DNA of 64,000 nucleotides from assembly GCA_023957475.1 (NCBI GenBank), contig JAMLHA010000010.1:1-64000 (forward strand), read 5' to 3'. How positions within the stretch are numbered: position 1 is the stretch's first letter; each line of letters opens with the position of its first letter. The notes beneath the pieces were generated by a model, which had not been told where the DNA came from, made no database searches, and worked only from the letters and a program-made list of their open reading frames with translations. The position numbers and the translations under genes are program-made. Positions 15,879-40,155 of this stretch are shown here, piece after piece. This DNA is from Crocinitomicaceae bacterium (GTDB lineage Bacteria; Bacteroidota; Bacteroidia; Flavobacteriales_D; Crocinitomicaceae).

Positions 15879-16088
15879 TTTTTTTCTCTTTTGTATATAC
15901 TTTCAAGTTAAGAGGAGTTAAACCTATTGAGAAGTTTGGTTTTTCGCCCTTCATCTGAGAGATATTTTGCGCTTTAAACTTGCTTAACTTGTCATACGAT
16001 CATAGTGCCAACAAATTAAAATATTCATTTCAAATTTTGTTATGCTTTGAAAAAAAATCTTATATTTAATACAACCAAAACCTTTTTT

Positions 16089-17129
16089 ATGTACACAGCT
16101 AAGCTTCTACAACACGACGGTAATCAACGTATTGCAGTATATTTTGAAAACAAGAAAGAGTTGATTCAACGATTCAAATTATTAAAAGGCGCCAAATGGA
16201 GTCGAACTCTTCGTTGTTGGCATCTGCCAGACACACATGAATACCGTAAATTATTCAAAATATCCATTTATAAAAACGGGCAATTATCAGTTGAAAAACT
16301 ACAACTGCTAGAACAATTTGAAAAATGGTTAACATCCAAACGCTACAGTGATAATACTATCAAAACTTACATAGGAGTAGTTTCTGTTTTTCACACTTAT
16401 TTCAAAGAAAAGCCTGTTGAATCTATCACAAATGATGACATTATTTTATTCAACAATGATTACATTTTAAAGCACAAACTCTCCTCTACTTATCAGAATC
16501 AATTTGTAAATGGGTTAAAATTATTTTACCGTATCGTTGAAAACAGATCTTTGGAAATCGACATCATTCATCGTCCACGAACGGAGCGAAAATTACCTCG
16601 AGTTTTAAGTAAAGAAGAAGTAAAAGCCATTTTAACTGCGCATGGAAATTTAAAACACCGCACAATGTTAAGTTTGATCTACGCTTGTGGTTTGCGGCGT
16701 TCCGAATTATTAAACATCACTTTCAAAGACATAAACAGAGATCGTTTGACTTTGCACGTTTTTCAAAGTAAGGGAAATAAAGATCGAATTGTACCACTTT
16801 CTCCAAAGATTTTAGAAATGATAGAAGATTATTATCGTGCATATCGCCCAAAGGTTTGGTTGTTTGAGGGGTATGAACAAGGAACGCAGTATAGTGGGAG
16901 AAGTTTACAACTAGTCTTAAAAAGTGCTTTAAAAAAATCAAACATTAAAAAACCTGCGACTTTACACTGGTTAAGGCACAGTTACGCAACTCATTTAGTA
17001 GAAAACGGAACGGACATTAGTTTAATTAAAGAACTTTTAGGACATAACAGCATCAATACTACTCAAATATATACACACGTTTCTCAAAAATTTATTGAAA
17101 AAATTAGAAGTCCTTTTGATGATTTGTAA
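16089..17129 (+). CDS. Tyrosine recombinase, candidate integron integrase
   Basis: 346 residues from ATG 16089 (an in-frame TTG lies at 16047). Residues 1-60 form an extra N-terminal domain (RFKLLKGAKWSRTLRCWHLP) seen in Bacteroidota integrases; 65-150 is the SAM-like core-binding domain. The catalytic set is complete: Arg in ACGLRRSELL, Lys in SKGNKDRIV, H293-R296 in HWLRHS, H319 in LLGH, and nucleophile Y328 in IYTHV. The C-terminal part (KPATLHWLRHSYAT and the ending IRSPFDDL) is closer to IntI proteins (KPATPHTLRHSFAT, VRSPLDAL) than to XerC/D, but the IntI-specific insertion before HxxR is absent. It lies 99 bp from the first cassette boundary and in the same orientation as the cassettes. 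Confidence 0.85.
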   Translation: MYTAKLLQHDGNQRIAVYFENKKELIQRFKLLKGAKWSRTLRCWHLPDTHEYRKLFKISIYKNGQLSVEKLQLLEQFEKWLTSKRYSDNTIKTYIGVVSVFHTYFKEKPVESITNDDIILFNNDYILKHKLSSTYQNQFVNGLKLFYRIVENRSLEIDIIHRPRTERKLPRVLSKEEVKAILTAHGNLKHRTMLSLIYACGLRRSELLNITFKDINRDRLTLHVFQSKGNKDRIVPLSPKILEMIEDYYRAYRPKVWLFEGYEQGTQYSGRSLQLVLKSALKKSNIKKPATLHWLRHSYATHLVENGTDISLIKELLGHNSINTTQIYTHVSQKFIEKIRSPFDDL

Positions 17130-17236
17130 TTTTTTTATTATTATTGTACAATGAATAGGCGAAACATTTTATCTCTTTAGAAAGGAATTTTTAGCTAAAG
17201 GGAAGTTTTGACTGAATATATAAAAGAGTTATGCAC
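17130..17236 (+). other. Candidate attI site and first cassette boundary
   Basis: The GTTATGCAC box at 17228-17236 matches the right-hand box of the palindromes downstream, but here it has no palindromic partner on its left. This is what an attI-by-cassette junction looks like: a lone recombination box directly after the integrase gene. The 98 bp before it are AT-rich and hold no ORF. The true extent of the site cannot be read from sequence. Confidence 0.6.
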
Positions 17237-17394
17237 AAGCGTAGGGCGACAGTGCTACTATCAACAGACAGGACAAAAGACAAACAAAAATCCCACAGAA
17301 AAATCGGTTATTAACAGGTCAACACAAAATTTGTTGAAAAATATTTTCGTTTATTTTATTAACTGCAAGTAATAATTTCTTATCTTTGCAACAT

Positions 17395-17640
17395 AGTTCT
17401 TTGAAAAGTGCTTTGGCTCTGACAACTAAATGGAGTTAAACTGACAGTCCGAAAGGACAACCCGAAAGGGTAATTTACAGGCACAACTGCATATCCCCCT
17501 ATCTGTCAATAGATATATGCCTTATTGCCGTAATTATTGTTCTGTTAATGATTATTGATATTATTTAATGGAGCAGGAAGTTAAGACAGCGTAACGAGAA
17601 CATCGCCTACACATTTAGTTACAGACAATCTTGTAAAGGA
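17395..17640 (+). ncRNA. Candidate retron msr-msd RNA
   Basis: No ORF. A TATCTTTG -7 box lies at 17381-17388. Then follow two small hairpins with GAAA loops (GTCC-GAAA-GGAC at 17447-17458; ACCC-GAAA-GGGT at 17460-17471) and one long imperfect hairpin at 17472-17535 (AATTTACAGGCA with TGCCGTAATT outside, GCATA with TATGC and TATCT with AGATA inside). AACTAAATG at 17424-17432 is complementary to CATTTAGTT at 17612-17620, which could be the a1/a2 pair. Short stem-loops, a long hairpin and flanking complementary arms are the layout of retron RNAs. The RT gene is 0.6 kb downstream, beyond two small genes. Confidence 0.5.
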
Positions 17641-17678
17641 GCAGGACGATATTGTCCTGTAACTTAATATTTTTTACA

Positions 17679-17927
17679 ATGAGTAGAATTAAACAAGCTC
17701 AAAGCATTGATAGTTTGATACAAGGAATCAAAACTATCACACAGAACCGGTGTTCTCTTTCGGAAACGGACTTAACAGTCCTAACTCAAGCGGAAACGCT
17801 ACTGAACGAGTTAAAACGGAAGAAAGGAAGAACAAACGAACAAATACTACAATGTGTAGTTGATGTAGTTGTTTTACTTTCCAAGTTTTTCAGTAATTCA
17901 GACGAAAAAAGCGAAATGCAACAGTAA
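17679..17927 (+). CDS. Small helical protein of the retron/R-M operon
   Basis: 82 residues from ATG 17679; an upstream in-frame TTG at 17652 lies in the hairpin region and is unlikely. The protein is all-helical by appearance (SIDSLIQGIKTIT, LTVLTQAETLLNELKRKKG, EQILQCVVDVVVLLSKFF), with no Cys pair, signal or known motif. It is the first gene of a run of five that are closely spaced or overlapping on the plus strand. It could be an accessory or effector of the RT, or an antitoxin-like factor. I do not recognise it. Confidence 0.55.
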   Translation: MSRIKQAQSIDSLIQGIKTITQNRCSLSETDLTVLTQAETLLNELKRKKGRTNEQILQCVVDVVVLLSKFFSNSDEKSEMQQ

Positions 17928-17962
17928 TCCGAACGCTTCTTAATTTTTTTTAAAACAAGAAA

Positions 17963-18253
17963 ATGGACTTAGGTAACGTCATAAAAAATATAAGAAAACA
18001 AAAAGGGCTAACTCAAAATGAGTTTGCCTCTTTGTGTGGTATCACACAAACTTATTTATCCCAAATAGAGAGTAATTTAAAAGAACCTAATCTTTCAACT
18101 CTCAAAAGTATTGGCGAACAACTAAATGTTCCTTTGCCTATCCTGTTTTTTCTTTCTATGACTGAAGAAGATGTTCAGCCAAACAAAAGAAAAGCGTTTC
18201 AAATTGTAAGCCCATCTGTTAAATCGTTAGTCAATGAATTTTTCGCAGTATAA
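17963..18253 (+). CDS. XRE-family HTH regulator
   Basis: 96 residues. Residues 5-60 form a Cro/CI-type helix-turn-helix: IRKQKGLTQNEFASLCGITQTYLSQIESNLKEPNLSTL. The C-terminal 35 residues are not familiar. The RT gene starts inside its last codons (20-bp overlap). The size and position, ahead of a type II methylase and nuclease, also fit a controller (C) protein of an R-M system, so it may regulate the whole operon; XRE proteins are also known as partners of some retrons. Confidence 0.85.
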   Translation: MDLGNVIKNIRKQKGLTQNEFASLCGITQTYLSQIESNLKEPNLSTLKSIGEQLNVPLPILFFLSMTEEDVQPNKRKAFQIVSPSVKSLVNEFFAV

Positions 18254-19103
18254 AAATAATGAAGTAAAAAAACTATCTGCGATAGTTGGTTTTAAGCCCG
18301 ATTTTATCGGGCAACTGACCAATGATATTGACAAATATTACAACGAATGGGTTGAAGAAAAAACAGACAAGAAAACAGGAAAGCCAAAAACTTTCAAAGA
18401 CGGAACAATAAAGAAACGAGTAATCAGACCGTCAAAAGGGGAATTAAAAATTATTCAGACAAGAATAAAAAATAAAATTCTTTCAAAAATTGAGTTGCCA
18501 AATAATGTTCACGGTGGTGTAAAAAAACGTAGTAACATTTCAAACGCTAAACCACATCAAGGGAACAAATATCAGTTTACAACTGACTTACAAGATTTTT
18601 ATCCAAATATTTCAGCAAAACGAGTTTACGAAACATTTGTAGAATTAAAGTATTCAACTCACTTTTCACGCCTAATAACAAAACTTACAACGTGGAAATA
18701 TGAATTACCACAAGGCACACCGACAAGCACTCACATAGCAAATCTTGTTTTTCTAAAAACTGACATTGCTTTGATTGAGTTGTGCAACAAATTCGGAATT
18801 ACATATACACGATACGTTGATGATTTAACCTTCTCATCTCAACAGGACTTTAAGCCACACTTGAATACAATTTTAGAAATCGTAAAATCAGGTGGTTTTA
18901 ATATCAGTTACCGAAAAACAAAGTATAAAGGCGAGCAGAACATCACAGGAATTGATGTTTTTCTTCACAAAATAGACGCACCTCAAAAAATAATTGAACG
19001 AGTTACACAAGAGCGAACGTCTAATTCGGGAACAAAACCACTAACGAACTATCTGAACAACATCAGAAAGACGAACAGAATAAAAAAACAAAAAGTAAAT
19101 TAA
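18234..19103 (+). CDS. Retron-type reverse transcriptase
   Basis: 289 residues, the size of a stand-alone retron RT. The retron-specific NAxxH motif is at 104-108 (SNAKPHQG), in region X between RT blocks 2 and 3. Block 3 is TTDLQDFYPNIS (116-126), block 4 LPQGTPTSTHIANLVF (158-173), the catalytic YVDD is at 194-197, block 6 NISYRKTKY, and the VTG-like triplet ITG is at 237-239. Such enzymes copy part of a folded RNA into multicopy single-stranded DNA and are known antiphage components. It overlaps the XRE gene and is followed after two bases by the methylase gene, so all are likely co-translated. No maturase or DGR features are present. Confidence 0.86.
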   Translation: MNFSQYKNNEVKKLSAIVGFKPDFIGQLTNDIDKYYNEWVEEKTDKKTGKPKTFKDGTIKKRVIRPSKGELKIIQTRIKNKILSKIELPNNVHGGVKKRSNISNAKPHQGNKYQFTTDLQDFYPNISAKRVYETFVELKYSTHFSRLITKLTTWKYELPQGTPTSTHIANLVFLKTDIALIELCNKFGITYTRYVDDLTFSSQQDFKPHLNTILEIVKSGGFNISYRKTKYKGEQNITGIDVFLHKIDAPQKIIERVTQERTSNSGTKPLTNYLNNIRKTNRIKKQKVN

Positions 19104-19105
19104 AA

Positions 19106-20209
19106 ATGTTATTTGAAGAATACAAATATTTCAACTACAATTTCCCTGAACCACAATATTTGGGAGCTAAGCACACACATTTAGCGTGGATTAAAGAATT
19201 TATTCCCGAAACTGTGAATGTGGCTTTGGATGCTTTTGCAGGTTCGCAGTCGGTTGCGTTTTTGTTTAAGCAAATGGGATTACAAACCATTACTAACGAT
19301 TTTTTGAATTTCAATAATCAAATCGGTTTGGCATTGATTGAAAACGGAAATGAAAAATTGACACACGAAGATTTATCCATTTTGTTTCAACCTGCAAAAA
19401 ACAAAGACGATTTTCAACTAATGAAATCCGTTTTTACAAATGTGTTTTTTGAAGAAATTGAAGCGGAATTTTTAGACAATTTTAGGGCAAATATTCCTTT
19501 GTTAGCTTCCCCATACAAACAGGCATTGGCTTACGCAGTCATCAACCGAAGTATGACCCGAAAAATAACAATGGGGCATTTCGGACATACACAAGCCTTG
19601 AAATATGCAAGCGACCCTGAACGCATTAAACGAAATAGAAGCTTAATAAGACCCGTCAAAGATATTTTTGAAGAATTATTACCAAAATACAACGAAGCGG
19701 TTTTTGACAACAAGCAGGACAATCAAAGCTACAATCAAAATATTTTAGATTTGTTGCCAACGCTTGAAAACGTTGATTTGGCTTACTTTGACCCACCTTA
19801 TTGCGACAGCCACGCAGATTACCAAAGTTTCTATCACTTGTTGGAAACCTTTACGGAGTATTGGAAAGACAAAGAATTTATAAACGGAATTAAACGCTAC
19901 GAGCCACAACGATTTAGCGGATTTGATAAAAAACGAGATGTGATTGAGTCGTTTGAAAAGTTATTTGAGTATTCACAAGAAATTCCACATTGGTTAATCA
20001 GCTATAATGACAGAAGCTATCCGAGTGTGGAGGAATTATCAAAAATAATTTCCAAATACAGAGAAGTAACGGTTGAAGCAAAAGCATACCACAACGGCAG
20101 AGGCGGAAAAGGAAGCGTAGCAGGAAGCCACGAAGTTTTGTTTGTGTGCAAACCAAAGAAAAAACATTTTATAACAACACAGGAAGAAGTCGTAAATGAA
20201 AGATTTTAA
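19106..20209 (+). CDS. Adenine-specific DNA methyltransferase (D12 class)
   Basis: 367 residues. The SAM-binding motif lies in DAFAGSQSVAFLFKQMG (about residues 41-57; the usual FxGxG is altered to FAGSQ) and the catalytic motif is DPPYCDSHADYQSFYH (about 229). This order, with YLGAKHTHLAWI at the N-terminus, is that of D12/Dam-like N6-adenine methylases of type II R-M systems. It starts two bases after the RT stop and its last 14 bases overlap the next gene, the putative nuclease. Its modification probably protects host DNA from that enzyme. Confidence 0.88.
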   Translation: MLFEEYKYFNYNFPEPQYLGAKHTHLAWIKEFIPETVNVALDAFAGSQSVAFLFKQMGLQTITNDFLNFNNQIGLALIENGNEKLTHEDLSILFQPAKNKDDFQLMKSVFTNVFFEEIEAEFLDNFRANIPLLASPYKQALAYAVINRSMTRKITMGHFGHTQALKYASDPERIKRNRSLIRPVKDIFEELLPKYNEAVFDNKQDNQSYNQNILDLLPTLENVDLAYFDPPYCDSHADYQSFYHLLETFTEYWKDKEFINGIKRYEPQRFSGFDKKRDVIESFEKLFEYSQEIPHWLISYNDRSYPSVEELSKIISKYREVTVEAKAYHNGRGGKGSVAGSHEVLFVCKPKKKHFITTQEEVVNERF

Positions 20210-21302
20210 TTATTGGAAGAAGTTACACGAAAGTGAACAATTGGAAGAATTTAGTTCAGACAGTATTGGTTTGCTTTGGCTGAAAACAAAATCAATAGTT
20301 CGTAAAGAATTGATTGCAGAATTTGTTGAGCAGAATAAAATTGCACTCAAAGAAACCGCTTTGGGAAAACAGTTTATTGAACTCTTTGAATTGCTCTGTA
20401 AAAACGTTGATAATTCTCACAAGATTTTAGACAGTTACATCAAAGAGAAAAACAAATTTCAAGTTGAAGAACTGAATACGGAACAATTGGTTTCTGAATT
20501 ATACAAACTCAAAAACTTTGATTGGGGTGGCGACTACCAAAATTCGTTGGATAAGTATTTGGTAAGTAGATATGTAAAAGTCAATAAATCTTACGATACG
20601 CTTGTTTCAAAATTTGAAACAGAAATTCAAGTCGCTGTTCAAGGTTATGTTTTGAATAGTTGGTACAACCATTGGAGCAGTATTTTGATTGAACATATTT
20701 TCAAATCGCATCCAACTGTTTTGCCAACAGTCGGACAAATCAAAAGTGTTGATTTCTTCATAAATAACGTCCCTTTTGATTTGAAAGTAACGTATTTGCC
20801 AGCCGAATACATCAAATTCAAACGAAAAGAAAAAGGATTACCTGTTGAACTTACATTTCTGAAAAACAAAGCGAAAGAAGCAAATATCATTTTTGACAAG
20901 AAAGCCAAAGACACAACAATTTTCTATGAGATAACAGAGAAAATGAAAGATAAGAATGACGAATTTTGCAACAATGTTTTAACAACATTGAAAAATGAAA
21001 AACTTAACATTCTAAAAGAAGTTCAAGATAACCCGAAAATATTAGCAACGTGGCTTTACGAAAATCAAGGCGAAATGCGTTTTGGCTCTGAAAATCGTTT
21101 ATTTCTTGTGCTTGTTGATACAGACGATTTTGGTAATTCTTGGAAACTAAAAAGAAACCTTGACCTTTTGAAACCGACCATTATGAACTATTTGGACAAT
21201 TTCAAAAACAAGAAAATTGACGACTTGAAAGTTTCATTTGGCTACAAAGGAAAACCACAGACTTTTACAGCATTGACAGACATAATATTTGTAGTAAAAT
21301 AA
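20196..21302 (+). CDS. Putative type II restriction endonuclease
   Basis: 368 residues with no close family that I recognise. A PD-(D/E)xK-like core is visible in the middle: Glu in SSILIEHIF, then VDFFINNVPFDLKVTYL (Asp, then D-x-K) at about residues 189-205. The start overlaps the methylase gene by 14 bases, the usual M-R arrangement, and this context is the main reason for the call. The remaining sequence is Lys-rich and helical. The stop is 22 bases before the attC-like site that closes cassette 1. Confidence 0.68.
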   Translation: MKDFNYWKKLHESEQLEEFSSDSIGLLWLKTKSIVRKELIAEFVEQNKIALKETALGKQFIELFELLCKNVDNSHKILDSYIKEKNKFQVEELNTEQLVSELYKLKNFDWGGDYQNSLDKYLVSRYVKVNKSYDTLVSKFETEIQVAVQGYVLNSWYNHWSSILIEHIFKSHPTVLPTVGQIKSVDFFINNVPFDLKVTYLPAEYIKFKRKEKGLPVELTFLKNKAKEANIIFDKKAKDTTIFYEITEKMKDKNDEFCNNVLTTLKNEKLNILKEVQDNPKILATWLYENQGEMRFGSENRLFLVLVDTDDFGNSWKLKRNLDLLKPTIMNYLDNFKNKKIDDLKVSFGYKGKPQTFTALTDIIFVVK

Positions 21303-21324
21303 AACGACTGACAGAAGAACGCCT

Positions 21325-21460
21325 GTGCATAACAAGAGCTTGGCGTAATGGCGGGCGAAGTGCTACTATTGAACTTTTGTGCCGTAACAAACAGTAGTGC
21401 ATCTATTAAACATTTGTGCTATAAATCCGCCACTACGCCAAGCCCCGAACCGTTATGCAC
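21325..21460 (+). other. attC-like site 1 (closes cassette 1)
   Basis: 136 bp. Left box GTGCATAAC (21325-21333) pairs with right box GTTATGCAC (21452-21460). The inner arm GCTTGGCGTAATGGCGG pairs with CCGCCACTACGCCAAGC (16 of 17). The centre contains AAGTGCTACTATTGAAC and TTTGTGCT, words shared with other sites of the array. The left box is the exact complement of the cassette start at 17228. Confidence 0.85.
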
Positions 21461-21539
21461 AAGTAAATTTAACAATAAAACATTTGGATTTAATAAAAAT
21501 AAGTTGTAATATTGATTATTAATCTTAAAAACAAGTATT

Positions 21540-21959: not shown

Positions 21960-23021
21960 ATGCTAAAGATATTACTTCTTCTCATATATTTGTATATATC
22001 GGCTATTTTCTCTTTATCCTTTTGTCAAAATAAATTAATGGAGAAATATTCTACGAATAAAGACTCAACTCTAATTATTGTTACAGTAAAAATTGACAAC
22101 AAACCATTCCCTTTCATATTTGATACTGGTAGTCAAATAAATTTATTATTCAACGATGGTAGTTTTGATTTGTCTAAAGCCAAAGACATTAAAATTCTTG
22201 ACTCTAAAAACAACTCTTCAAAGGCACAAATAGTAAGAAAACATATTGAACTTCCATTCTTTAATATAAAAAGTAAAGGTCTTTGTGTTATCATAGAAAG
22301 CAAACCAAAACTTTTTGAAAGGTTAAATATTCACGGAATTCTAGGTGCCGATATTATTAATAAATTTAATTGGAGAATAGACACTAGAAATTTAGAGATT
22401 TATCGTATCAACGAAAAAGATATAAAAACCCTAGATACCAACTCATATATTATTAATACTTTTATTGATAAAAACAATACACTTAGTGCAAGTGCTGATA
22501 TTAATAACAATAATTCAAATACCTTTATTTTTGATACAGGTTATAATGGAATACTAAGCATCTCTTCACCACGTAAAACAACTACAAACAAACAACATTT
22601 TATTGAACATGTCGGTGTTGAAAGCACAATTAATGGAGATAAGATGGATACGAGTTTTATTAATTTAGACACTCTTAGAATAGGAAATTTTATAATAGAA
22701 AATATTCCCATCTCATATTATTCATTTGATGATAAAAATGAGTTAAACACAATAGGAATGGGCTTCTTTAAAACATTCGAAGAAATAAATATAATTAACT
22801 CAAAAAGGTTGATTATTCTTTCAAAAATCAAACAATATCAATATACTTTTCCTAATTTCACTGATTTTGATGGCAAAGTAATGTCTCAAAACACAAAACT
22901 TGGACAGAAATCAAATTTTATTATAGGAAAAGATTCGAAAACCATAAAATTAGACTTAATAAATGCTCCTATTACTAAATTCACATTGAATAACAATATA
23001 CCTGTGCATAACATCAAATAA
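21960..23021 (+). CDS. Retropepsin-like aspartyl protease, exported
   Basis: 353 residues. A signal peptide (MLKILLLLIYLYISAIFSLSFC) is followed by two lobes, each with an aspartic protease active-site triad: FIFDTGSQINLLF (about residue 53) and FIFDTGYNGILSIS (about 190). Hydrophobic-hydrophobic-Gly turns also occur (GILGADIINKFNW and GMGFFKTFEEINII). This is the bacterial aspartyl-protease family with duplicated halves. The last codons (PVHNIK) are encoded by the left box of the closing attC-like site, so the gene runs into the recombination site, as often in integron cassettes. Confidence 0.82.
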   Translation: MLKILLLLIYLYISAIFSLSFCQNKLMEKYSTNKDSTLIIVTVKIDNKPFPFIFDTGSQINLLFNDGSFDLSKAKDIKILDSKNNSSKAQIVRKHIELPFFNIKSKGLCVIIESKPKLFERLNIHGILGADIINKFNWRIDTRNLEIYRINEKDIKTLDTNSYIINTFIDKNNTLSASADINNNNSNTFIFDTGYNGILSISSPRKTTTNKQHFIEHVGVESTINGDKMDTSFINLDTLRIGNFIIENIPISYYSFDDKNELNTIGMGFFKTFEEINIINSKRLIILSKIKQYQYTFPNFTDFDGKVMSQNTKLGQKSNFIIGKDSKTIKLDLINAPITKFTLNNNIPVHNIK

Positions 23022-23138
23022 GCACCAGCCACAATAAATGCTTCGTGTAATGTTTTTCACAAAGATAAAATTTGTAGCTTCGTATTTTAGGTTTAACGTA
23101 AAAATGTGGCCGTTGCCTATTTGAGAACCGTTGTGCGT
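23004..23138 (+). other. attC-like site 2 (closes cassette 2)
   Basis: 135 bp. Left box GTGCATAAC (23004-23012), exact complement of the cassette start box at 21452. Right box GTTGTGCGT (23130-23138). Inner arms CAAATAAGCACCAGCCACA and TGTGGCCGTTGCCTATTTG pair in 16 of 19. The left box pairs only in part with the right box because the latter belongs to the next cassette. Confidence 0.82.
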
Positions 23139-23213
23139 CATTGTATCGGACGACAAAAAAGTCGTCTGCGATACGTCTGACGAGTGAACCGAAAAATTTG
23201 TAAAATTGAACCT

Positions 23214-24101: not shown

Positions 24102-24704
24102 ATGATAAATAATTTATACAAAACACTTATTATTTGGGTTATACATTTTGTATTAATCTCAAACACAAATATTAATGCACAAGAACCACAATCAACTTGG
24201 CTAAACTTAACATATAATGGATTTCTTCCAAAAGTATTTGACATTAAGGATAAAACCACTGCTGAATTATATAATAAAGCGGTTGAGTGGGCTAATTCAT
24301 TCTATCCGAACATTAAGAATGACCTAATATTTGACAGTACCAATTATCAACTTAAAATTCGGACAATCAAGACTGAAGCTTTCTATATTGGATTAAAAAG
24401 AAATTTATATGACGTTGATTATACCTTAACAATATCGTTTAAAGATCAGAAATACCGAGTTCAAGTTGATTTAAACACATTCTATTATAACCCGAGAAAT
24501 ACAAAATATAGATCAGGTGGTGAACCACAAAAGACTGGTTGGGATCAAAGAGAATTTTATCTTTCAGAAAAAGAAATAGACCCAAAAAATAGTTTGGCTT
24601 ATTCCGAATTGTATTTTGCAATGTATGAAGTTTCAACTTCGCTATTTCAAGCAATGAATTCAAAAACATTTGTAATTGAAAAACAAAAAAATGATGACTG
24701 GTAA
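24102..24704 (+). CDS. Exported protein of unknown function, cassette 4
   Basis: 200 residues from ATG 24102. It has a signal peptide (MINNLYKTLIIWVIHF, cleavage probably at NINA-QEP). The mature part is a single alpha/beta-looking domain (FDIKDKTTAELYNKAVEWANSFYP, KIRTIKTEAFYIGL, YRVQVDLNTFYYNP). It recalls the DUF4468-type and TBP-like exported domains of Bacteroidota, but I am not certain of the family. It is the only gene of cassette 4; the closing site starts four bases after its stop. Confidence 0.65.
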   Translation: MINNLYKTLIIWVIHFVLISNTNINAQEPQSTWLNLTYNGFLPKVFDIKDKTTAELYNKAVEWANSFYPNIKNDLIFDSTNYQLKIRTIKTEAFYIGLKRNLYDVDYTLTISFKDQKYRVQVDLNTFYYNPRNTKYRSGGEPQKTGWDQREFYLSEKEIDPKNSLAYSELYFAMYEVSTSLFQAMNSKTFVIEKQKNDDW

Positions 24705-24707
24705 AAT

Positions 24708-24788
24708 ACCACTAACAGCAAATAAACAAAAGCGCCGAAACGATTATATTTGAAAGGCGCCTTTGCCTATTTGCAAACCGTTATGCGT
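24708..24788 (+). other. attC-like site 4, short form (closes cassette 4)
   Basis: 81 bp, the short member of the set. Left box ACCACTAAC (24708-24716), exact complement of the cassette start GTTAGTGGT at 24081. Right box GTTATGCGT (24780-24788). Inner arms GCAAATAAACAAAAGCGCC and GGCGCCTTTGCCTATTTGC pair in 16 of 19. The central region of the long sites is missing. Confidence 0.82.
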
Positions 24789-24933
24789 CACCTTAAAAAG
24801 ACATACTAACGGTTCAAGGCAGGCTAACCACCTATAATGACATAAAAAAAATGGAGACAAGAAAACCATCTAAAAAAACAGCGAGAAATCTGAAAATCGA
24901 AAAGAGTAAGAAAAACAAATTAAAAAACTACAA

Positions 24934-26211
24934 ATGGCTAAAATATTTCAAGGGGATAGCACCTCTTCAAGCAAAATCGTTTTTACTTTTGATGGCAAAT
25001 ACGTTTACCAAGGCGACAGCACATCTTCAAGTAAAAGAATATACACTTGGGATGGTAAACACATTTTTCAAGGAGACAGCACTTCTTCAAGTAAGATAAT
25101 GTATACTTGGGATGGAAAATACCTCTATCAAGGCGACTCTACTTCATCAAGTAAAAGACTTTATACTTGGGATGGAAAATACTTTTACCAAGGTGACAGC
25201 AGTTCCTCAAGTAAAAGAATTTACACTTTTGATGGAAAACATTTGTATCAAGGTGATTCCACTTCTTCAAGTAGAATAATGTATACTTTTGATTCACCAG
25301 TTCCGCCAGCAGGGCATATTCAGCAAGTTGTTTTAGCAAATTCACCTGTATCTCAAGAGGTGTTGAATGTCTTAAACAGTATGAATATTCCAAACGGAAT
25401 AAAAAACCAAATCAACAATGCACAAACAGGTGTTTCTGCTATGACGTATTTGAACAACGAAATATCCTTTGCATCAACAGAACGAAATAGTCTGATTGAT
25501 GAGCGTATTCGTTTATTCTTAAATGATACGTTAATTCAAAATCCTTTGGACAGCATCGCTATAATCCTAAAAGAGGAAAAAAGGGAAATACGTAAAAAAC
25601 AGCTTTGTGATACTTACATTGGCAAAGGTGATACTGTTAAAGCCACTGAAACAAGAGATACTTTAGCATTGGAATATGGATATAATAATTACGTAAAAAT
25701 GGCTGATGTTCAACTAGAAGTTTTTAGTTTGCCTTCATCTTGCTTTGCGGTTATTACCGACCCCAACATTAAACAGGAAGTAGAATACGTGGCTTACGAC
25801 CCTAACGACCGCATCAATGCTGTTCGTGGAGAAGCCCTGCTTGCCGTTGCTTTTGATAGTTTATTTTTAGCGAACATAGAACCGCTTGAACCCATCGGCA
25901 GCGGTTTACGAATGGGACAGAATAATCTAGAACAGCAAAAAGTTTCAGCTAAAGAAAGTTCTTTATCTATCTATCCGAATCCTTCGGATGGTGGTATCGT
26001 AAACTTAGAAATTAAAGGTGATGAATTGTTAAACAATGTAAGCCTTGAAATCTATACTATCACAGGTCAGTTAGTTGCTTCGTATTCGTTCAGTGGTGAG
26101 AACAGAATGGTTACTATAAACACCAACAAATTAATACCCGGTGTTTATTTTGTAAAACTGTTCAGCAATACCCAACTTATCGAAACTAAAAAACTCTTGA
26201 TTAATAATTAA
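24934..26211 (+). CDS. T9SS type A sorting-domain protein with 20-residue repeats
   Basis: 425 residues. Residues 5-124 hold six near-perfect 20-residue units of the form [YF]QGDSTSSSKRIYTWDGKHI. A helical middle part follows, and residues 345-425 form the type IX secretion C-terminal signal: SLSIYPNPSDGG, then VSLEIYTITGQLV, and LIPGVYFVKLFS with a KKLLINN end. Such proteins are moved over the outer membrane and fixed on the surface. Odd: from ATG 24934 there is no signal peptide, which T9SS cargo needs; the first gene part may be lost or fused. A reading frame from 24851 overlaps in another phase and may mark the old 5' end. Confidence 0.75.
   Translation: MAKIFQGDSTSSSKIVFTFDGKYVYQGDSTSSSKRIYTWDGKHIFQGDSTSSSKIMYTWDGKYLYQGDSTSSSKRLYTWDGKYFYQGDSSSSSKRIYTFDGKHLYQGDSTSSSRIMYTFDSPVPPAGHIQQVVLANSPVSQEVLNVLNSMNIPNGIKNQINNAQTGVSAMTYLNNEISFASTERNSLIDERIRLFLNDTLIQNPLDSIAIILKEEKREIRKKQLCDTYIGKGDTVKATETRDTLALEYGYNNYVKMADVQLEVFSLPSSCFAVITDPNIKQEVEYVAYDPNDRINAVRGEALLAVAFDSLFLANIEPLEPIGSGLRMGQNNLEQQKVSAKESSLSIYPNPSDGGIVNLEIKGDELLNNVSLEIYTITGQLVASYSFSGENRMVTINTNKLIPGVYFVKLFSNTQLIETKKLLINN
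24946..25305 (+). repeat. Six tandem 60-bp repeats within the T9SS protein gene
   Basis: Six copies of a 60-bp unit encode the QGDSTSSSK..YTWDGK repeats. Synonymous differences among copies are scattered, so the array is not the product of a very recent duplication. Copy number could vary between strains. Confidence 0.85.
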
Positions 26212-28322: not shown

Positions 28323-28457
28323 TTGCTAACATGGGCTAAAATCAAGTGGGCATTTGTAGGTCATTCAAGTTCAGTACTTTTTATCTACTTTTGTGGTGGT
28401 GGACAATGAAGTGGTTATCAATTGCCCACCAGCTTTTAGCCCAAGCCCGTTAGCTAC
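28323..28457 (+). other. attC-like site 5 (closes segment 5)
   Basis: 135 bp. Left box TTTGCTAAC region (28322-28330), right box GTTAGCTAC (28449-28457). Inner arms GGGCTAAAA with TTTTAGCCC and GTGGGCA with TGCCCAC pair perfectly. The left box does not fit the segment start GTTATGCGT at 24780, so a boundary has probably been lost within segment 5. Confidence 0.78.
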
Positions 28458-29847: not shown

Positions 29848-29979
29848 CTAACATCGTATTGGCAATAGGCGGGCTAAACGGCTTCGTATCAACGATAGTG
29901 CAAAATTCAACTTTCGTTCTTCGATTAAAGTTCAGTGCTAAAAATCCCGCCCATCGCCAATACGAGGCACGTTATGGGC
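29844..29979 (+). other. attC-like site 6 (closes cassette 6)
   Basis: 136 bp. Left box GTAGCTAAC (29844-29852), exact complement of the cassette start GTTAGCTAC at 28449. Right box GTTATGGGC (29971-29979). Inner arms CGTATTGGCAATAGGCGGG and CCCGCCCATCGCCAATACG pair in 17 of 19. Confidence 0.85.
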
Positions 29980-31709: not shown

Positions 31710-32254
31710 GTTGGAGTAGGGACATAGATAAGATTACTAAGGATTTCAATTCTCAATTTGGACATCTAAGCATCGAGCAATTGAATTGGAAACCTAATCA
31801 GCAAACGTGGAGTATTGCTCAAAATATGGAACATTTAATCGTAGTTAACGAAACGTATTATCCGGTTTTGGCTTCATTGAATATAAAGACATATAAAACA
31901 CCATTGATCGGCAAGATTGGTTTTATAGTTTCATTCTTAGGTAAGACTGTGCTTAATGCAGTTAAGCCCGACAGAAAGAAAAAGATGAAAACATTTTCTA
32001 TATGGGAGCCAACCAAAAGTGAAATCAATGACGATATCCTTAAACGATTTGAGAACCATCAGACCATACTAAAGCAAAAGATAGATGCATCGAAAGAATT
32101 TATTGAAAAAGGAGTGGTAATTTCATCACCTGCGAACAGAAATATTGTATATAAATTGGAAACGGCTTTTGATATTATTATTTCTCACGAGCAACGGCAT
32201 TTAGAACAAGCAAGAGAGATTTTGCTATTACTGACAAAGAATACCAGCCACTAA
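31706..32254 (+). CDS. DinB family protein
   Basis: 182 residues. The four-helix bundle of DinB/DUF664 proteins is suggested by LNWKPNQQTWSIAQNMEHLIVVNETYYPVL near the N-terminus (His of a metal site) and IIISHEQRHLEQAREILLLL at the end (two further His). Members are metal-dependent enzymes, often thiol transferases, or stress-related proteins of unknown activity. The start overlaps the methyltransferase gene (ATGA), and the stop lies inside the left box of the closing attC-like site. Confidence 0.8.
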   Translation: MSWSRDIDKITKDFNSQFGHLSIEQLNWKPNQQTWSIAQNMEHLIVVNETYYPVLASLNIKTYKTPLIGKIGFIVSFLGKTVLNAVKPDRKKKMKTFSIWEPTKSEINDDILKRFENHQTILKQKIDASKEFIEKGVVISSPANRNIVYKLETAFDIIISHEQRHLEQAREILLLLTKNTSH

Positions 32255-32383
32255 CAAACAAATTGGCAATAGAGCCGGTGAAGTGCTTCTATTGAGCTTT
32301 TGTTCAAGGTTGAAGAGTAGTAATTCAATTCAGCATTTGTGCTAAAAGTCGGCTCCATCGCCAATTTGCCGCACGTTAGCACT
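32247..32383 (+). other. attC-like site 7 (closes segment 7)
   Basis: 137 bp. Left box GCCACTAAC (32247-32255), right box GTTAGCACT (32375-32383). Inner arms CAAATTGGCAATAGAGCCGG and TCGGCTCCATCGCCAATTTG pair in 17 of 20. The left box does not match the start box GTTATGGGC at 29971, so segment 7 may be a fusion of two cassettes. No gene lies between here and hsdM at 32549; I see no clear promoter there. Confidence 0.82.
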
Positions 32384-32548: not shown

Positions 32549-34147
32549 ATGAGTGAAGAATATAAAAGAATACTAGAAGCCCAACTTTGGAACATTGCCA
32601 ATACGCTACGTGGCAAAATGAATGCTGACGAATTTCGTGACTACATTTTGGGTTTCATTTTCTATAAATACCTAAGCGAGAAAATGAACATTTTCGCTGA
32701 CGAAATATTGAAACAAGACGGCATTAAGTTCAAAGACATTACTCCAAAGACCGAAAACGGAGCAGCATTTATTGAAGCTATAAAGGAAGAAGCTTTGGAG
32801 AAATTGGGCTACTTTTTAAGACCCGAAGAACTCTTTACAGAAGTTGCCAAACGAGGCAAAGGCGACAATGAAGAGGATGGTCAAAACTTTGATGAAAGCA
32901 AAACCAATTTCATTTTAGAGGACTTACAAAAAATCCTTATCAATATCCAGTTGAGTACAATGGGTACTGAAAGTGAAGAAGATTATGAAAATCTCTTTGA
33001 GGATATGGATTTGAACAGTTCTAAATTGGGTAAAACTCCCGAAGCAAGAAATGCAATCATTGCAAAGGTGTTGACGCATCTTGACAAAATTGATTTCAAG
33101 TTAAATGACCTTAACGAAGTTGATGTATTAGGTGATGCTTACGAATACCTGATTGGGCAATTTGCCAGTGGAGCAGGTAAAAAAGCAGGTGAATTTTATA
33201 CCCCGCAACAAGTTTCTTCCATACTTGCAAAACTCGTAACGACAGGAAAACAAAAACTAAAATCGGTTTACGACCCCACTTGTGGTTCGGGTTCTTTGTT
33301 GCTTCGTGTGGCAAGAGAAGTAGAAGATGTAAGTAATTTTTACGGACAGGAAATGAACCGTACTACTTACAACCTTGCCCGAATGAATATGATTTTGCAC
33401 GGTGTACATTACCGCCAATTTGATATAAAGCAAGACGATACACTTGAACACCCACAGCACATTGACAAACAATTTGAAGCCATTGTAGCCAATCCGCCAT
33501 TTTCGGCTCAATGGAGTGCAAACCCTTTGTTTACAAGTGACGACCGCTTTAGCCAATACGGAAGACTAGCACCAAGCAGCAAAGCCGACTTTGCTTTTGT
33601 GCAACATATGATTTACCATTTGGCTGACAATGGCACTATGGCAATTGTATTGCCTCACGGTGCTTTGTTTCGTGGTGGTGCAGAGCAACACATTCGCAAG
33701 TATTTGATAGAAAACAAAAACTTTTTAGATGCTGTCATTGGCTTACCAGCCAATATATTTTACGGTACAAGCATTCCGACTTGTATTTTGGTTTTCAAAA
33801 AGTGCAGAGAAAATCCTGATGATATTTTATTTATTGATGCCAGCCAGCATTTTGAAAAGGTAAAAACCCAAAATGTATTGCGTAAGCAAGATATTGATTT
33901 GATTGTTGAAACCTACCGCAACAGAACAGAAACGCCAAAATACAGCAAGAAAGCAACTTTAGAAGAAATTGCGAAAAACGATTACAACCTGAACATACCA
34001 CGCTATGTAGATACGTTTGAGGCAGAAGAAAATATTGACATTGAAGCCATTGCCCAGGAAATAAAAGCATTGGACGAAACGATGGCTACTACAGACAAAA
34101 CCATTGCAACTTTTTGTGCTGAACTGAATATCTCAACACCTTTTTAA
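32549..34147 (+). CDS. hsdM: Type I restriction-modification system, methylase subunit
   Basis: 532 residues. The N-terminal HsdM domain (LWNIANTLRGKMNADEFRDYILGFIFYKYLSEK) is followed by the N6-adenine methylase domain with motif I YDPTCGSGSLLLRVA (about residue 241) and motif IV VANPPFSAQW (about 315). With HsdS it methylates the target; with HsdR it forms the nuclease complex. It opens the large cassette 8. Length and domain order are normal. Confidence 0.95.
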   Translation: MSEEYKRILEAQLWNIANTLRGKMNADEFRDYILGFIFYKYLSEKMNIFADEILKQDGIKFKDITPKTENGAAFIEAIKEEALEKLGYFLRPEELFTEVAKRGKGDNEEDGQNFDESKTNFILEDLQKILINIQLSTMGTESEEDYENLFEDMDLNSSKLGKTPEARNAIIAKVLTHLDKIDFKLNDLNEVDVLGDAYEYLIGQFASGAGKKAGEFYTPQQVSSILAKLVTTGKQKLKSVYDPTCGSGSLLLRVAREVEDVSNFYGQEMNRTTYNLARMNMILHGVHYRQFDIKQDDTLEHPQHIDKQFEAIVANPPFSAQWSANPLFTSDDRFSQYGRLAPSSKADFAFVQHMIYHLADNGTMAIVLPHGALFRGGAEQHIRKYLIENKNFLDAVIGLPANIFYGTSIPTCILVFKKCRENPDDILFIDASQHFEKVKTQNVLRKQDIDLIVETYRNRTETPKYSKKATLEEIAKNDYNLNIPRYVDTFEAEENIDIEAIAQEIKALDETMATTDKTIATFCAELNISTPF

Positions 34148-34181
34148 ACCATGATTTTAAAGATTAAATGATTACTTGATT

Positions 34182-34562
34182 ATGAAACATGAGGATTTAA
34201 CTAGAAAAATTATTGGATGTGCAATGGAAGTACATAAACAGCTAGGCAATGGCTTTCAGGAAGTTATATACCAAAGGGCACTTTCTATCGAATTACAATT
34301 ACAAGGCTTGGAATTTAGCAGAGAACACGAAATGCAAATACAGTACAAAGGACATGAAATTGGCACTAGACGTGTTGATTTTTTTGTAGAAAATGTAATA
34401 ATGGTGGAATTGAAAGCAATCATTAATTTGGAAGATGTACACTTGGCACAGGCAATGAACTATGTGGAAGCCTACGATTTGGAAATCGGACTGCTTCTCA
34501 ATTTTGGGGCAAAAAGCCTACAATTCAAACGGGTTCATAACAACAAAAAAGAAATCAAGTAA
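34182..34562 (+). CDS. GxxExxY protein
   Basis: 126 residues from ATG 34182 (an upstream TTG at 34176 is also in frame). The family motif is GNGFQEVIYQRAL, with a PD-(D/E)xK-like core RVDFFVENVIMVELKA and the late INLEDVHLAQAMNYVEAYDLEIGLLLNFG. Such proteins are common in Bacteroidota and occur near or inside R-M loci; the activity is unproved, though the core resembles nucleases. It stands between hsdM and hsdS with gaps of 34 and 2 bases, so it is part of the operon. Confidence 0.85.
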   Translation: MKHEDLTRKIIGCAMEVHKQLGNGFQEVIYQRALSIELQLQGLEFSREHEMQIQYKGHEIGTRRVDFFVENVIMVELKAIINLEDVHLAQAMNYVEAYDLEIGLLLNFGAKSLQFKRVHNNKKEIK

Positions 34563-34564
34563 TC

Positions 34565-35809
34565 ATGCCAATCAAAAATAATCAAGGTTCAGACAACATA
34601 CCACAATTGCGTTTCCCTGAATTCAAAGACAAATGGAATGAGGAAAAAATGGGTGAAATATATTCATTCAAAGTAACAAACTCACTTTCAAGAGACAATT
34701 TGAATTATGAGGAAGGAACTGTAAAAAATATACATTACGGAGATATTCACACCAAATTCCAAACGCTTTTTGATATTACAAAGGAAAATGTTCCTTTCAT
34801 TAACTCTGAGATTTCAATTGATAGAATTTCAGAGGATAACTATTGCAAGGAAGGCGATTTGATACTTGCAGATGCTTCCGAAGACTTAAATGATGTAGGT
34901 AAATCAATTGAGGTATTTAATTTAAACAACGAAAAATTGTTAGCAGGACTGCATACCATTTTAGCAAGACCTAATTTGGAAAAGTTCGATATTGGTTTTG
35001 GTGGATACTTATTCAAGTCAAATAAAGTAAGAACGAAAATTCAGAAAGAGGCACAAGGCTCAAAAGTGTTGAGTATTTCAGCAACACGACTATCAAATAT
35101 TTCTTTAGACTTTCCTTCAAAAGACGAGCAAAAGAAAATTGTGGAGTGCTTTAGTTCCATTGACGAAAAAATCCAAGCCCTCAAAAAGAAACACAGTCTT
35201 TTAGAGCAATACAAAAAAGGCGTAATGCAAAAACTCTTTTCGCAAGAAATTAGATTTAAGGATAAAAAAGGAAATGATTTTCCGGAGTGGGAAGAAAAGC
35301 AAGTTAAAGACTTATTCAAAGTTACAAGAGGTGATGTACTTGCAATGTCATTAGTTAGCGATGAAATAGAAAACGACCATATTTATCCAGTCTACTCCTC
35401 GCAAACAAAAAATAGAGGATTAGCAGGTTACTACAATGAATACTTATTTGAAGATGCTATAACTTGGACAACGGACGGTGCAGGTGCAGGAGATGTCAAT
35501 TTCAGAGAAGGAAAATTTTATTGCACAAATGTATGTGGAGTTTTATTGAGTGAAGAAGGTTATGCTAATCTATTTATAGCAGAATTGCTCAATTCAGTTT
35601 CAAGAAAATATGTGTCTTATGTTGGAAATCCCAAGTTAATGAATAATGTAATGGCTGAAATTTCAATCATTATTCCAGTGTCTGTTGAAGAACAACAAAA
35701 GATTTCCAATTTTTTAAAATCACTCAATTTAAGGATTAAGCAGTTAGAAATTGAAATTGCCAAAACAGAAAATTGGAAAAAAGGGCTTTTACAAAAAATG
35801 TTTTGTTAA
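34565..35809 (+). CDS. hsdS: Type I restriction-modification system, specificity subunit
   Basis: 414 residues with two target-recognition domains. TRD1 covers about 10-180 and opens with LRFPEFKDKWNEEKMGEIYSF. A coiled-coil spacer follows (EQKKIVECFSSIDEKIQALKKKHSLLEQYKKGVMQKLF), then TRD2 from about 240 (FPEWEEKQVKDLFKVTRG) and a second helix (VEEQQKISNFLKSLNLRIKQLEIEI). The repeated ends (KKGVMQKLF and KKGLLQKMF) are typical of HsdS. It defines the bipartite DNA target. The target itself cannot be read from sequence. Confidence 0.93.
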   Translation: MPIKNNQGSDNIPQLRFPEFKDKWNEEKMGEIYSFKVTNSLSRDNLNYEEGTVKNIHYGDIHTKFQTLFDITKENVPFINSEISIDRISEDNYCKEGDLILADASEDLNDVGKSIEVFNLNNEKLLAGLHTILARPNLEKFDIGFGGYLFKSNKVRTKIQKEAQGSKVLSISATRLSNISLDFPSKDEQKKIVECFSSIDEKIQALKKKHSLLEQYKKGVMQKLFSQEIRFKDKKGNDFPEWEEKQVKDLFKVTRGDVLAMSLVSDEIENDHIYPVYSSQTKNRGLAGYYNEYLFEDAITWTTDGAGAGDVNFREGKFYCTNVCGVLLSEEGYANLFIAELLNSVSRKYVSYVGNPKLMNNVMAEISIIIPVSVEEQQKISNFLKSLNLRIKQLEIEIAKTENWKKGLLQKMFC

Positions 35810-35904
35810 GGAATGAAGCAGACGAAAGACATATTAAAAGCCCTGAAAATTAATGGCATTAAAAATTTAACTTTGAAAATGTTTACAGAATTCAAAAAAA
35901 GTAT

Positions 35905-35912
35905 TACCTTTG
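35905..35912 (+). promoter_or_regulatory. -7 box ahead of the tandem hairpin RNA
   Basis: TACCTTTG fits the Bacteroidota -7 consensus TAnnTTTG and lies 11 bp before the first hairpin unit. No good -33 TTG stands at the right distance. Confidence 0.45.
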
Positions 35913-35917
35913 CACTA

Positions 35918-36044
35918 ACAGTACCTGTGTTGCTTCCCGTTAGAACAGCTCACGGGTCTTTCTTTTTTATAGGGTTTACCACAAAATTAATACACCTCTT
36001 CTGCCTCTCCACGATGCACACTGAAGGGGTCTTTTCTTTTAATA
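35918..36044 (+). ncRNA. Two tandem hairpin units upstream of the Abi gene
   Basis: Unit 1: ACCTGTG (35923-35929) pairs with CACGGGT (35951-35957). Unit 2: ACCTCTTC (35994-36001) pairs with GAAGGGGT (36023-36030). Both loops are 21 nt, both 3' arms end in GGGTCTTT with a T-rich tail, and the units are 71 bp apart. Loop sequences also agree in part (TGC-YT-YCC, then ACA or CAC and CT). The repeated architecture indicates a structured RNA rather than a protein gene. Its place directly before an Abi_2/AbiF-like HEPN gene suggests the guide-like antitoxin RNA described for AbiF systems. Confidence 0.6.
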
Positions 36045-36056
36045 ACACATTGCACA

Positions 36057-36950
36057 ATGGCTAAACCTTCACATTCAATACAACAACAAATTGCTTTACT
36101 ACAAAGTAGAGATATGCAATTTAGAAACATTGCAGATGCTCCCCATTTTTTAAGTAATATTAGCTATTATCGATTAAAAGGCTATTGGTGGGAGATGCAG
36201 GAAGATAAAGTAAATCATCATTTCGCCCCCAATAGTTATTTTGAAGATGTAATTGATTTATACAATTTCGACAGGCATTTCAGGCTTATTGCTTTTAATG
36301 CCATAGAAAGAATTGAAATTGCATTAAGAACTAAATTGATTTATCACTTATCACAAACTTATGGCTCGCATTGGTATTTGATACCTTCTATATTTCAGGA
36401 CCCAAAAAGATTTAATTCTTTCTTAGGCAAAATCAATATGGATATGAGTAATAGTAGTGAAGAGTTTATTGTAAAGCATTTTGATAATCATCCTGATGAA
36501 ATGCCCGAAAGTTGGAAAGCTCTTGAAGTATTAACATTAGGTACTTTATCAAAATTGTATAGTAATTTAAAACATCAGCTTCCAGAGAAAAATAAAATTG
36601 CAAACGAATTTGGATTGAATAATCAAAAATATTTAGTGAGTTGGTTATTAACCATCACAGTAATTAGAAATATAATAGCTCACCATAGCAGATTATGGAA
36701 TAGAGTAATAATCAATAAATATGATTGGCCACCAACATCACCTAAACCTATATTAAATTATATCCCAAACAATCATCAACGCAGAAAGATATTTCCAATT
36801 CTTTCTGCCATTATTTATTTGAATGATGAAATAAGCCCAGGTCATCAAATTAAACAAGAACTTTTTAGCCTATTTGCAAAATTCCCTAATGTACAATTAA
36901 GCAAAATGGGATTCCCTGCAAATTGGCAAAACGAACCCCTTTGGAAATAA
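36057..36950 (+). CDS. Abi_2 (AbiD/AbiF-like) HEPN protein
   Basis: 297 residues. The Abi_2 family start is evident (QQIALLQSRDMQFRNIADAPHFLSNISYYRLKGYWW, FEDVIDLYNFDRHFRLIAFNAIERIEIALRTKLIYH). The HEPN ribonuclease motif R-x4-H is RNIIAH at 204-209, in ITVIRNIIAHHSRLWNRV. Family members are abortive-infection proteins, and the HEPN motif implies RNA cleavage. It lies between hsdS and hsdR, two bases before hsdR, and behind the tandem hairpin RNA, so it is an R-M-embedded toxin candidate. Confidence 0.87.
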   Translation: MAKPSHSIQQQIALLQSRDMQFRNIADAPHFLSNISYYRLKGYWWEMQEDKVNHHFAPNSYFEDVIDLYNFDRHFRLIAFNAIERIEIALRTKLIYHLSQTYGSHWYLIPSIFQDPKRFNSFLGKINMDMSNSSEEFIVKHFDNHPDEMPESWKALEVLTLGTLSKLYSNLKHQLPEKNKIANEFGLNNQKYLVSWLLTITVIRNIIAHHSRLWNRVIINKYDWPPTSPKPILNYIPNNHQRRKIFPILSAIIYLNDEISPGHQIKQELFSLFAKFPNVQLSKMGFPANWQNEPLWK

Positions 36951-36951
36951 T

Positions 36952-40018: not shown

Positions 40019-40155
40019 AGTGCTAACAGCGGTTTTGCGTAATGGCGGGTGCAGTGCTTCGTATGACAGTTTTGTGGTAGGTTCAAGTGCAGTACTTCGA
40101 TTGAACTTTTGTGCTAAAAATCCCCCACAACGCAAAGCCGCAAACCGTTGGCATC
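40019..40155 (+). other. attC-like site 8 (closes cassette 8)
   Basis: 137 bp. Left box AGTGCTAAC (40019-40027), exact complement of the cassette start GTTAGCACT at 32375. Right box region GTTGGCATC (40147-40155). Inner arms GCGGTTTTGCGTAATGG and CCCACAACGCAAAGCCGC pair well. The centre shares AGTGCTTCGTATGACAG and TTTGTGCTAAAAAT with other sites. Confidence 0.83.

What the first reader, a model, noticed from the sequence alone, without database searches (positions are those of the whole stretch)
17228..21460. Cassette 1: retron-type RT placed between an XRE/controller gene and a type II methylase-nuclease pair
An 82-aa gene, XRE, RT, D12 methylase and putative nuclease form one operon with a 20-bp overlap (XRE/RT), a 2-bp gap (RT/methylase) and a 14-bp overlap (methylase/nuclease), all inside one mobile cassette. 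Type II R-M systems often have a C-protein gene in front; here the RT sits between it and the enzymes. Retrons are known with many effectors, but a tight union with a complete type II R-M system is not one I know. The RT-DNA might sense or regulate the R-M activity, or R-M might be the effector.
Basis: partly seen in the sequence, partly recalled or inferred. Interest (0 to 1): 0.92.

Follow-up and report, generated by a model that had tools for sequence, protein, structure and literature searches.

The report
Retron and restriction system fused together
A mobile integron cassette in a Bacteroidota genome carries a known kind of phage-defence retron (type VI) with a restriction-modification gene pair joined to its tail; relatives carry each half alone as its own cassette, so this looks like two defence systems fused onto one transcript rather than a single new machine.

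Summary
The gene order, overlaps and cassette ends are as described. The other two are a D12 adenine methylase and an unfamiliar PD-(D/E)xK-like nuclease. The whole is an integron-type cassette, first after an integrase and closed by an attC at 21325-21460.

The "tight union" is not a conserved system. None of 80 type VI RT relatives carries this R-M pair. Three (L061, L076, L077) are retron-only cassettes with attC at the RT stop. A same-genus genome (G395) carries the R-M pair (methylase 80% identical) as a cassette of its own without a retron. Other R-M systems do lie near type VI retrons (11 of 80 loci within 4 kb, all co-directional), including unrelated type II pairs directly downstream (BanI, HinP1I), but equally upstream, as in defence islands.

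Best reading: a fused cassette whose two independent defence systems share the retron promoter. That promoter carries a conserved palindrome seen only where the HTH is present, so the HTH probably sets R-M expression too. R-M as retron effector is unlikely and untested.

The parts
16047..17129 (+). tyrosine recombinase of the integron/XerA kind, presumed cassette integrase
   Evidence: Phage_integrase 1e-38; XerA_Arch 213.6 bits (cut-off 220) and integron integrase TIGR02249 195 bits (cut-off 265)
17229..17240 (+). cassette left junction GTTATGCACAAG
   Evidence: same 12-mer as at the right junction 21452-21463
17359..17372 (+). operator-like palindrome TTAACTGCAAGTAA in the retron promoter
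   Evidence: consensus TTAACTGNCAGTAA with at most 2 mismatches in 40 of 79 type VI loci against 0.8 expected; 39 of 64 loci with an HTH hit, 0 of 13 without
17381..17388 (+). -7 promoter element TATCTTTG (Bacteroidota type)
   Evidence: the only -7-like match upstream of the R-M genes in the cassette
17395..17672 (+). retron ncRNA; starts with conserved AGTTCTTTGA; terminal stem 17423-17432 with 17612-17621
   Evidence: fold z = -3.1; 12 of 21 pairs with changes on both sides, 0 of 500 shuffles as high
17679..17927 (+). small protein SP, 82 aa
   Evidence: PADLOC SP_VI 3.9e-22
17963..18253 (+). XRE/Cro-type HTH protein
   Evidence: PADLOC HTH_VI 6.4e-30; Pfam HTH_3 2e-16
18234..19103 (+). retron reverse transcriptase with YVDD, NAKPH and ITG motifs
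   Evidence: PADLOC RT_VI 3.9e-75; alignment
19106..20209 (+). D12-class adenine methyltransferase (DPPY)
   Evidence: Pfam MethyltransfD12 1.8e-17, PADLOC MTase_II 8e-53; 80% identical to the methylase of the G395 cassette
20196..21302 (+). putative PD-(D/E)xK restriction endonuclease
   Evidence: no family hit; invariant E166/D186/D195-L-K197; paired with D12 or N6_N4 methylases in other genomes
21325..21460 (+). attC recombination site closing the cassette
   Evidence: R boxes GTGCATAAC/GTTATGCAC, L boxes GCTTGGCGTAATGGCG/CGCCACTACGCCAAGC; bottom-strand fold z = -5.9

Best explanation
A composite integron cassette: a complete type VI retron (ncRNA, SP, HTH, RT) fused at its 3' end to a type II-like R-M pair that elsewhere forms its own cassette. 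The attC that once closed the retron cassette is gone, and the R-M genes now begin 2 bp after the RT stop. Biochemically the two systems probably act independently: the R-M cuts unmodified incoming DNA, while the retron RT makes RT-DNA that guards a toxic activity of the SP/HTH side. They share one transcript starting at about 17390. The HTH probably binds the TTAACTGNCAGTAA palindrome in that promoter and regulates the retron, and so incidentally also sets R-M expression. Shown: gene order, families, ncRNA covariation, attC, retron-only and R-M-only cassettes in relatives, conserved palindrome. Inferred: fusion by loss of an attC, co-transcription, HTH binding, independent action, any phage protection.
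For: Type VI identity. Covarying ncRNA. None of 80 RT relatives has this R-M pair. Retron-only cassettes with attC at the RT stop in L061, L076, L077; a retron without R-M on a Riemerella plasmid. Same-genus G395 has integrase, then methylase (80%), nuclease (34%) and attC, with no retron; no RT relative in either same-genus genome. The R-M pair occurs elsewhere without a retron: L043 (fused, behind a promoter-like site) and L044 (behind lepA). No -7 promoter element between the ncRNA promoter and the methylase. Palindrome tracks the HTH.
Against: Two other type VI retrons are followed at 9 bp and 119 bp by unrelated complete type II systems (BanI, HinP1I), and others by type IIG, type III, type I and BREX genes, so the neighbourhood is more than a one-off; it could mean selection for coupling. 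No expression or phage data exist here.
Confidence: 0.68

Rival explanations
1. Selected regulatory coupling: the retron HTH has taken over the job of a controller (C) protein, so that the R-M genes are expressed with the delay or induction dictated by the retron promoter, perhaps switched on when phage disturbs the retron.
For: HTH scores against PADLOC Control_protein models (1e-7, though HTH_VI is far better, 6e-30); palindrome in the shared promoter; no other promoter seen before the methylase; all 11 loci with R-M neighbours within 4 kb of type VI RTs are co-directional (binomial 0.0013).
Against: R-M neighbours are about as common upstream (5 loci) as downstream (6), where the retron promoter cannot drive them; the palindrome is also present in loci without R-M; this R-M pair lives without the HTH in G395, L043 and L044.
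Confidence: 0.2
2. R-M as retron effector: the RT-ncRNA-DNA complex restrains or guides the nuclease, and methylation of the RT-DNA or phage damage releases it.
For: Tight gene spacing; retrons are known to exchange effectors for whole defence modules (HipA/DUF3037 in Retron-Sda1, Septu in type I; PMC12548924) and some are triggered by adenine methylation of RT-DNA (same paper).
Against: The nuclease has its own methylase and a stand-alone life; SP and HTH are kept, so nothing has been replaced; no RT relative has this pair.
Confidence: 0.05
3. Mere adjacency: the R-M genes have a promoter of their own inside the RT gene that the consensus scan missed, so even transcription is separate.
For: The promoter consensus is short and the scan was simple; in L043 the pair has its own promoter-like site.
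Against: No TAnnTTTG between 17388 and the methylase start; 2-bp RT/methylase gap.
Confidence: 0.07

Closest known systems
Type VI retron (PADLOC SP_VI / HTH_VI / RT_VI; classification of Mestre et al. 2020, known to me only from memory and the model names)
   Same: all three proteins, gene order and spacing; structured ncRNA upstream
   Different: R-M pair joined to the RT at 2 bp; carried in an integron cassette
Type II R-M systems with a controller (C) gene
   Same: small HTH gene upstream, methylase and nuclease in tandem
   Different: HTH belongs to the retron; an RT gene lies between; the palindrome is in front of the ncRNA, not of the R-M genes
Retron-Sda1 (type III RT with HipA/DUF3037; PMC12548924)
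   Same: a retron associated with a complete second defence module
   Different: there the usual effector is replaced; here SP and HTH remain and an R-M pair is added
Defence cassettes of integrons (Darracq et al. 2025, as summarised in PMC12409362)
   Same: attC-bounded defence genes near the integrase
   Different: five genes and two systems in 4.2 kb with its own promoter, whereas integron defence cassettes are described there as streamlined, with larger systems of more than two genes notably absent

Membership tests
Type VI retron | RT of the type VI clade | tested here: met
   RT_VI 3.9e-75, next best RT_III-A 6e-53
Type VI retron | associated SP and HTH genes | tested here: met
   SP_VI 3.9e-22, HTH_VI 6.4e-30
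Type VI retron | conserved structured ncRNA with paired ends upstream | tested here: met
   10-bp terminal stem, 8 of its 10 pairs with two-sided changes, 91.5% of cells paired
Type VI retron | makes RT-DNA (msDNA) | not testable with these tools
   needs RT-DNA isolation
Type II R-M system | DNA methyltransferase | tested here: met
   MethyltransfD12 1.8e-17; DPPY
Type II R-M system | cognate restriction endonuclease | tested here: inconclusive
   PD-(D/E)xK-like invariant residues and methylase pairing, but no family hit and a low-confidence model, pLDDT 42.8
Integron gene cassette | attC with complementary R and L boxes at its 3' end | tested here: met
Integron gene cassette | bona fide IntI integrase | tested here: not met
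   TIGR02249 hit is split in two stretches and below the curated cut-off (195 against 265 bits); XerA_Arch scores higher. So 'integron-like', not a proven integron
C-protein-controlled R-M | controller gene with its operator in front of its own and the R-M genes | tested here: inconclusive
   palindrome in the shared promoter, but it belongs to the retron in relatives without R-M; binding untested

The most novel reading that the evidence does not exclude
A retron operon that doubles as the inducible controller of a restriction system: when phage disturbs the retron, HTH repression of the shared promoter changes and the attached R-M pair is induced, so type VI retrons act as portable, regulated expression slots for different R-M modules.
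Probability: 0.12. Interest if true: 0.75.

Novelty: new variant of a known kind. Interest (0 to 1): 0.45.

Why it matters
It shows that retrons travel as integron-type cassettes in Bacteroidota and can be fused with a restriction system into one multi-gene cassette, larger than integron defence cassettes are described to be (PMC12409362). It also offers a directly testable idea for the poorly understood type VI retrons: a conserved palindrome in the ncRNA promoter that tracks the HTH protein, suggesting autoregulation. If that regulation also governs attached R-M genes, it would be a new way to keep restriction in check.

Tried and rejected
Structure prediction of the nuclease from two sequences gave a useless model (pLDDT 42.8), so no fold search was run. 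Solved-structure searches with nuclease and methylase gave nothing useful beyond a weak MboIIA match for the methylase. No relatives of the nuclease in plasmids or phages, one in viral contigs. Rfam has no match to the ncRNA. Idea that R-M is enriched specifically downstream of type VI RTs: rejected, 6 downstream against 5 upstream loci within 4 kb. Idea that the 76-aa ORF before the methylase in L043 is a controller gene: not pursued; the translation shows no recognisable HTH (read by eye). Operator-like matches elsewhere in the window (52761, 53067, 62805): those at 52761 and 53067 fall inside a 335-aa gene and are taken as chance; 62805 was not followed up. Prior report of a retron-R-M operon: none found; a Psychrobacter plasmid with an RT gene and type II R-M has a different arrangement, with RT and methylase on opposite strands (PMC3346939). 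Mestre et al. 2020 is not in the library.

Full report
What is there. The coordinates and junctions in the finding are exact: SP 17679-17927, HTH 17963-18253, RT 18234-19103, methylase 19106-20209, nuclease 20196-21302, with a 20-bp overlap, a 2-bp gap and a 14-bp overlap. PADLOC models name the first three SP_VI (4e-22), HTH_VI (6e-30) and RT_VI (4e-75), that is, a type VI retron. The RT keeps YVDD, the retron-type NAxxH stretch (NAKPH) and ITG. The methylase is D12 class. The nuclease matches no Pfam, NCBIfam or PADLOC family, but eight homologues share invariant E166, D186 and D195-L-K197, the layout of a PD-(D/E)xK nuclease, and it is paired with D12 or, in L054, N6_N4-type methylases. Calling it a restriction enzyme is therefore inference with good support, not proof.

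In front of SP lies a conserved ncRNA of about 280 nt, starting with AGTTCTTTGA (17395). Across 20 relatives its consensus structure keeps 93% of pairs, and 12 of 21 pairs have changes on both sides (0 of 500 shuffles as high; sliding the partners destroys it). The paired ends are 17423-17432 with 17612-17621. Just upstream is a Bacteroidota -7 element (17381) and, 8 bp before it, a palindrome, TTAACTGCAAGTAA (17359). The consensus TTAACTGNCAGTAA is present with at most 2 mismatches in 40 of 79 type VI loci (window included) against 0.8 in shuffled sequence. It occurs in 39 of 64 loci with an HTH hit and in 0 of 13 without (Fisher 3e-5; sequences are related, so the value is indicative). I infer that the HTH protein binds there and regulates the ncRNA promoter.

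The cassette. A tyrosine recombinase (16047-17129) precedes the cassette; it scores as XerA/integron-like, but below the curated cut-off for a bona fide IntI. The attC at 21325-21460 has complementary R and L boxes and folds at z = -5.9. Further attC-like hairpins occur at about 22990-23140, 24690-24790, 29850-29976, 32250-32378 and 40021-40153, so this is the first cassette of an array.

Are the two halves one system? A scan of 85,000 species genomes found 142 RT relatives, of which 80 were kept. Most show SP and HTH in the same order, and none has this methylase or nuclease. In three of them, L061, L076 and L077, an attC sits at or immediately after the RT stop: the retron alone is the cassette. 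Conversely the R-M pair occurs without a retron in L043 (as a fused protein) and L044 (behind lepA). In G395, of the same genus as the window's genome, it is the first cassette beside the integrase: methylase 80% identical, nuclease 34%, then an attC, no retron. The G395 nuclease is closer (57%) to the one in L055, which stands next to a different, 539-aa upstream gene, so even the R-M pair is mosaic. The window cassette is thus best read as a retron module joined to an R-M cassette.

Is the combination recurrent? Within 4 kb of the RT, 11 of 80 loci carry R-M or BREX genes, all on the RT's strand. Downstream are R.BanI plus a C5 methylase (L064, 9 bp), a C5 methylase plus R.HinP1I (L062, 119 bp), an N6/N4 methylase plus an Eco57I-like type IIG enzyme (L126, 30 bp), a type III system (L134), BrxA of BREX (L128) and a type I system (L115). 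But five loci have such genes upstream, where the retron promoter cannot drive them, and downstream neighbours in general are on the same strand in exactly half of cases (37 of 74). This is the pattern of defence islands with co-directional modules; a special functional bond is neither shown nor excluded. These counts rest on my own seeds and ORF calls and on related genomes, so they are rough.

Mechanism. Most likely two defence systems on one regulated transcript: the R-M pair acts on incoming DNA; the retron guards an SP/HTH-linked response by RT-DNA, as retrons do in general (PMC12548924). No other -7 element lies between the ncRNA promoter and the methylase, so HTH control of the shared promoter would also set R-M dosage. 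Two sites resembling the -7 element lie inside the methylase gene, so separate expression of the nuclease cannot be excluded.

Novelty. The components are known kinds. I found no report of a type VI retron in an integron cassette or fused to type II R-M in the open library, but subscription papers, including the main retron classification, were not available. [quoted passage not shown] this 4.2-kb, five-gene cassette would be an exception, as would the type I system further along the array, if this integron-like array counts as an integron.

Noticed in passing
window 32549-39882, attC-like sites at about 32250-32378 and 40021-40153: A complete type I R-M system (HsdM, HsdS, an Abi_2-like gene, HsdR, named by reading the translations) lies between two attC-like sites, so it may itself be a 7.6-kb integron cassette, far larger than usual.
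   Followed up: partly
window 16047-17129: The integrase scores higher as XerA_Arch than as integron integrase and is split across the IntI model, as if it lacked the IntI-specific insertion; an integron-like array run by a Xer-type enzyme would be unusual.
   Followed up: partly
L064 1623-3997; L062 8981-10766; L126 2437-6214; L134 8866-14913; L128 9001-13969; L115 4268 onward: Type VI retrons followed by complete but unrelated R-M or BREX systems of type II, IIG, III and I.
   Followed up: partly
L182 (G395:C49) 716-2928: In the same genus the methylase is 80% conserved but the partner nuclease only 34%, as if the nuclease had been swapped while the methylase stayed.
   Followed up: yes
type VI loci, e.g. 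window 17395-17404: The ncRNA starts with nearly invariant AGTTCTTTGA, resembling a boxA antitermination signal (from memory); its role is untested.
   Followed up: partly
window 28324-28455: An attC-like hairpin on the minus strand inside the array, opposite to the other sites.
   Followed up: no
window 24888-25293: Five 60-nt tandem repeats encoding a YQGDSTSSSK-like motif in a 425-aa protein.
   Followed up: no
L099 8869-13438; L088 2147-3178; L066 9019-9804: Other tightly or closely linked genes behind type VI RTs: a caspase-like gene overlapping the RT, a DUF4365 gene 4 bp behind, a trypsin-like gene.
   Followed up: no
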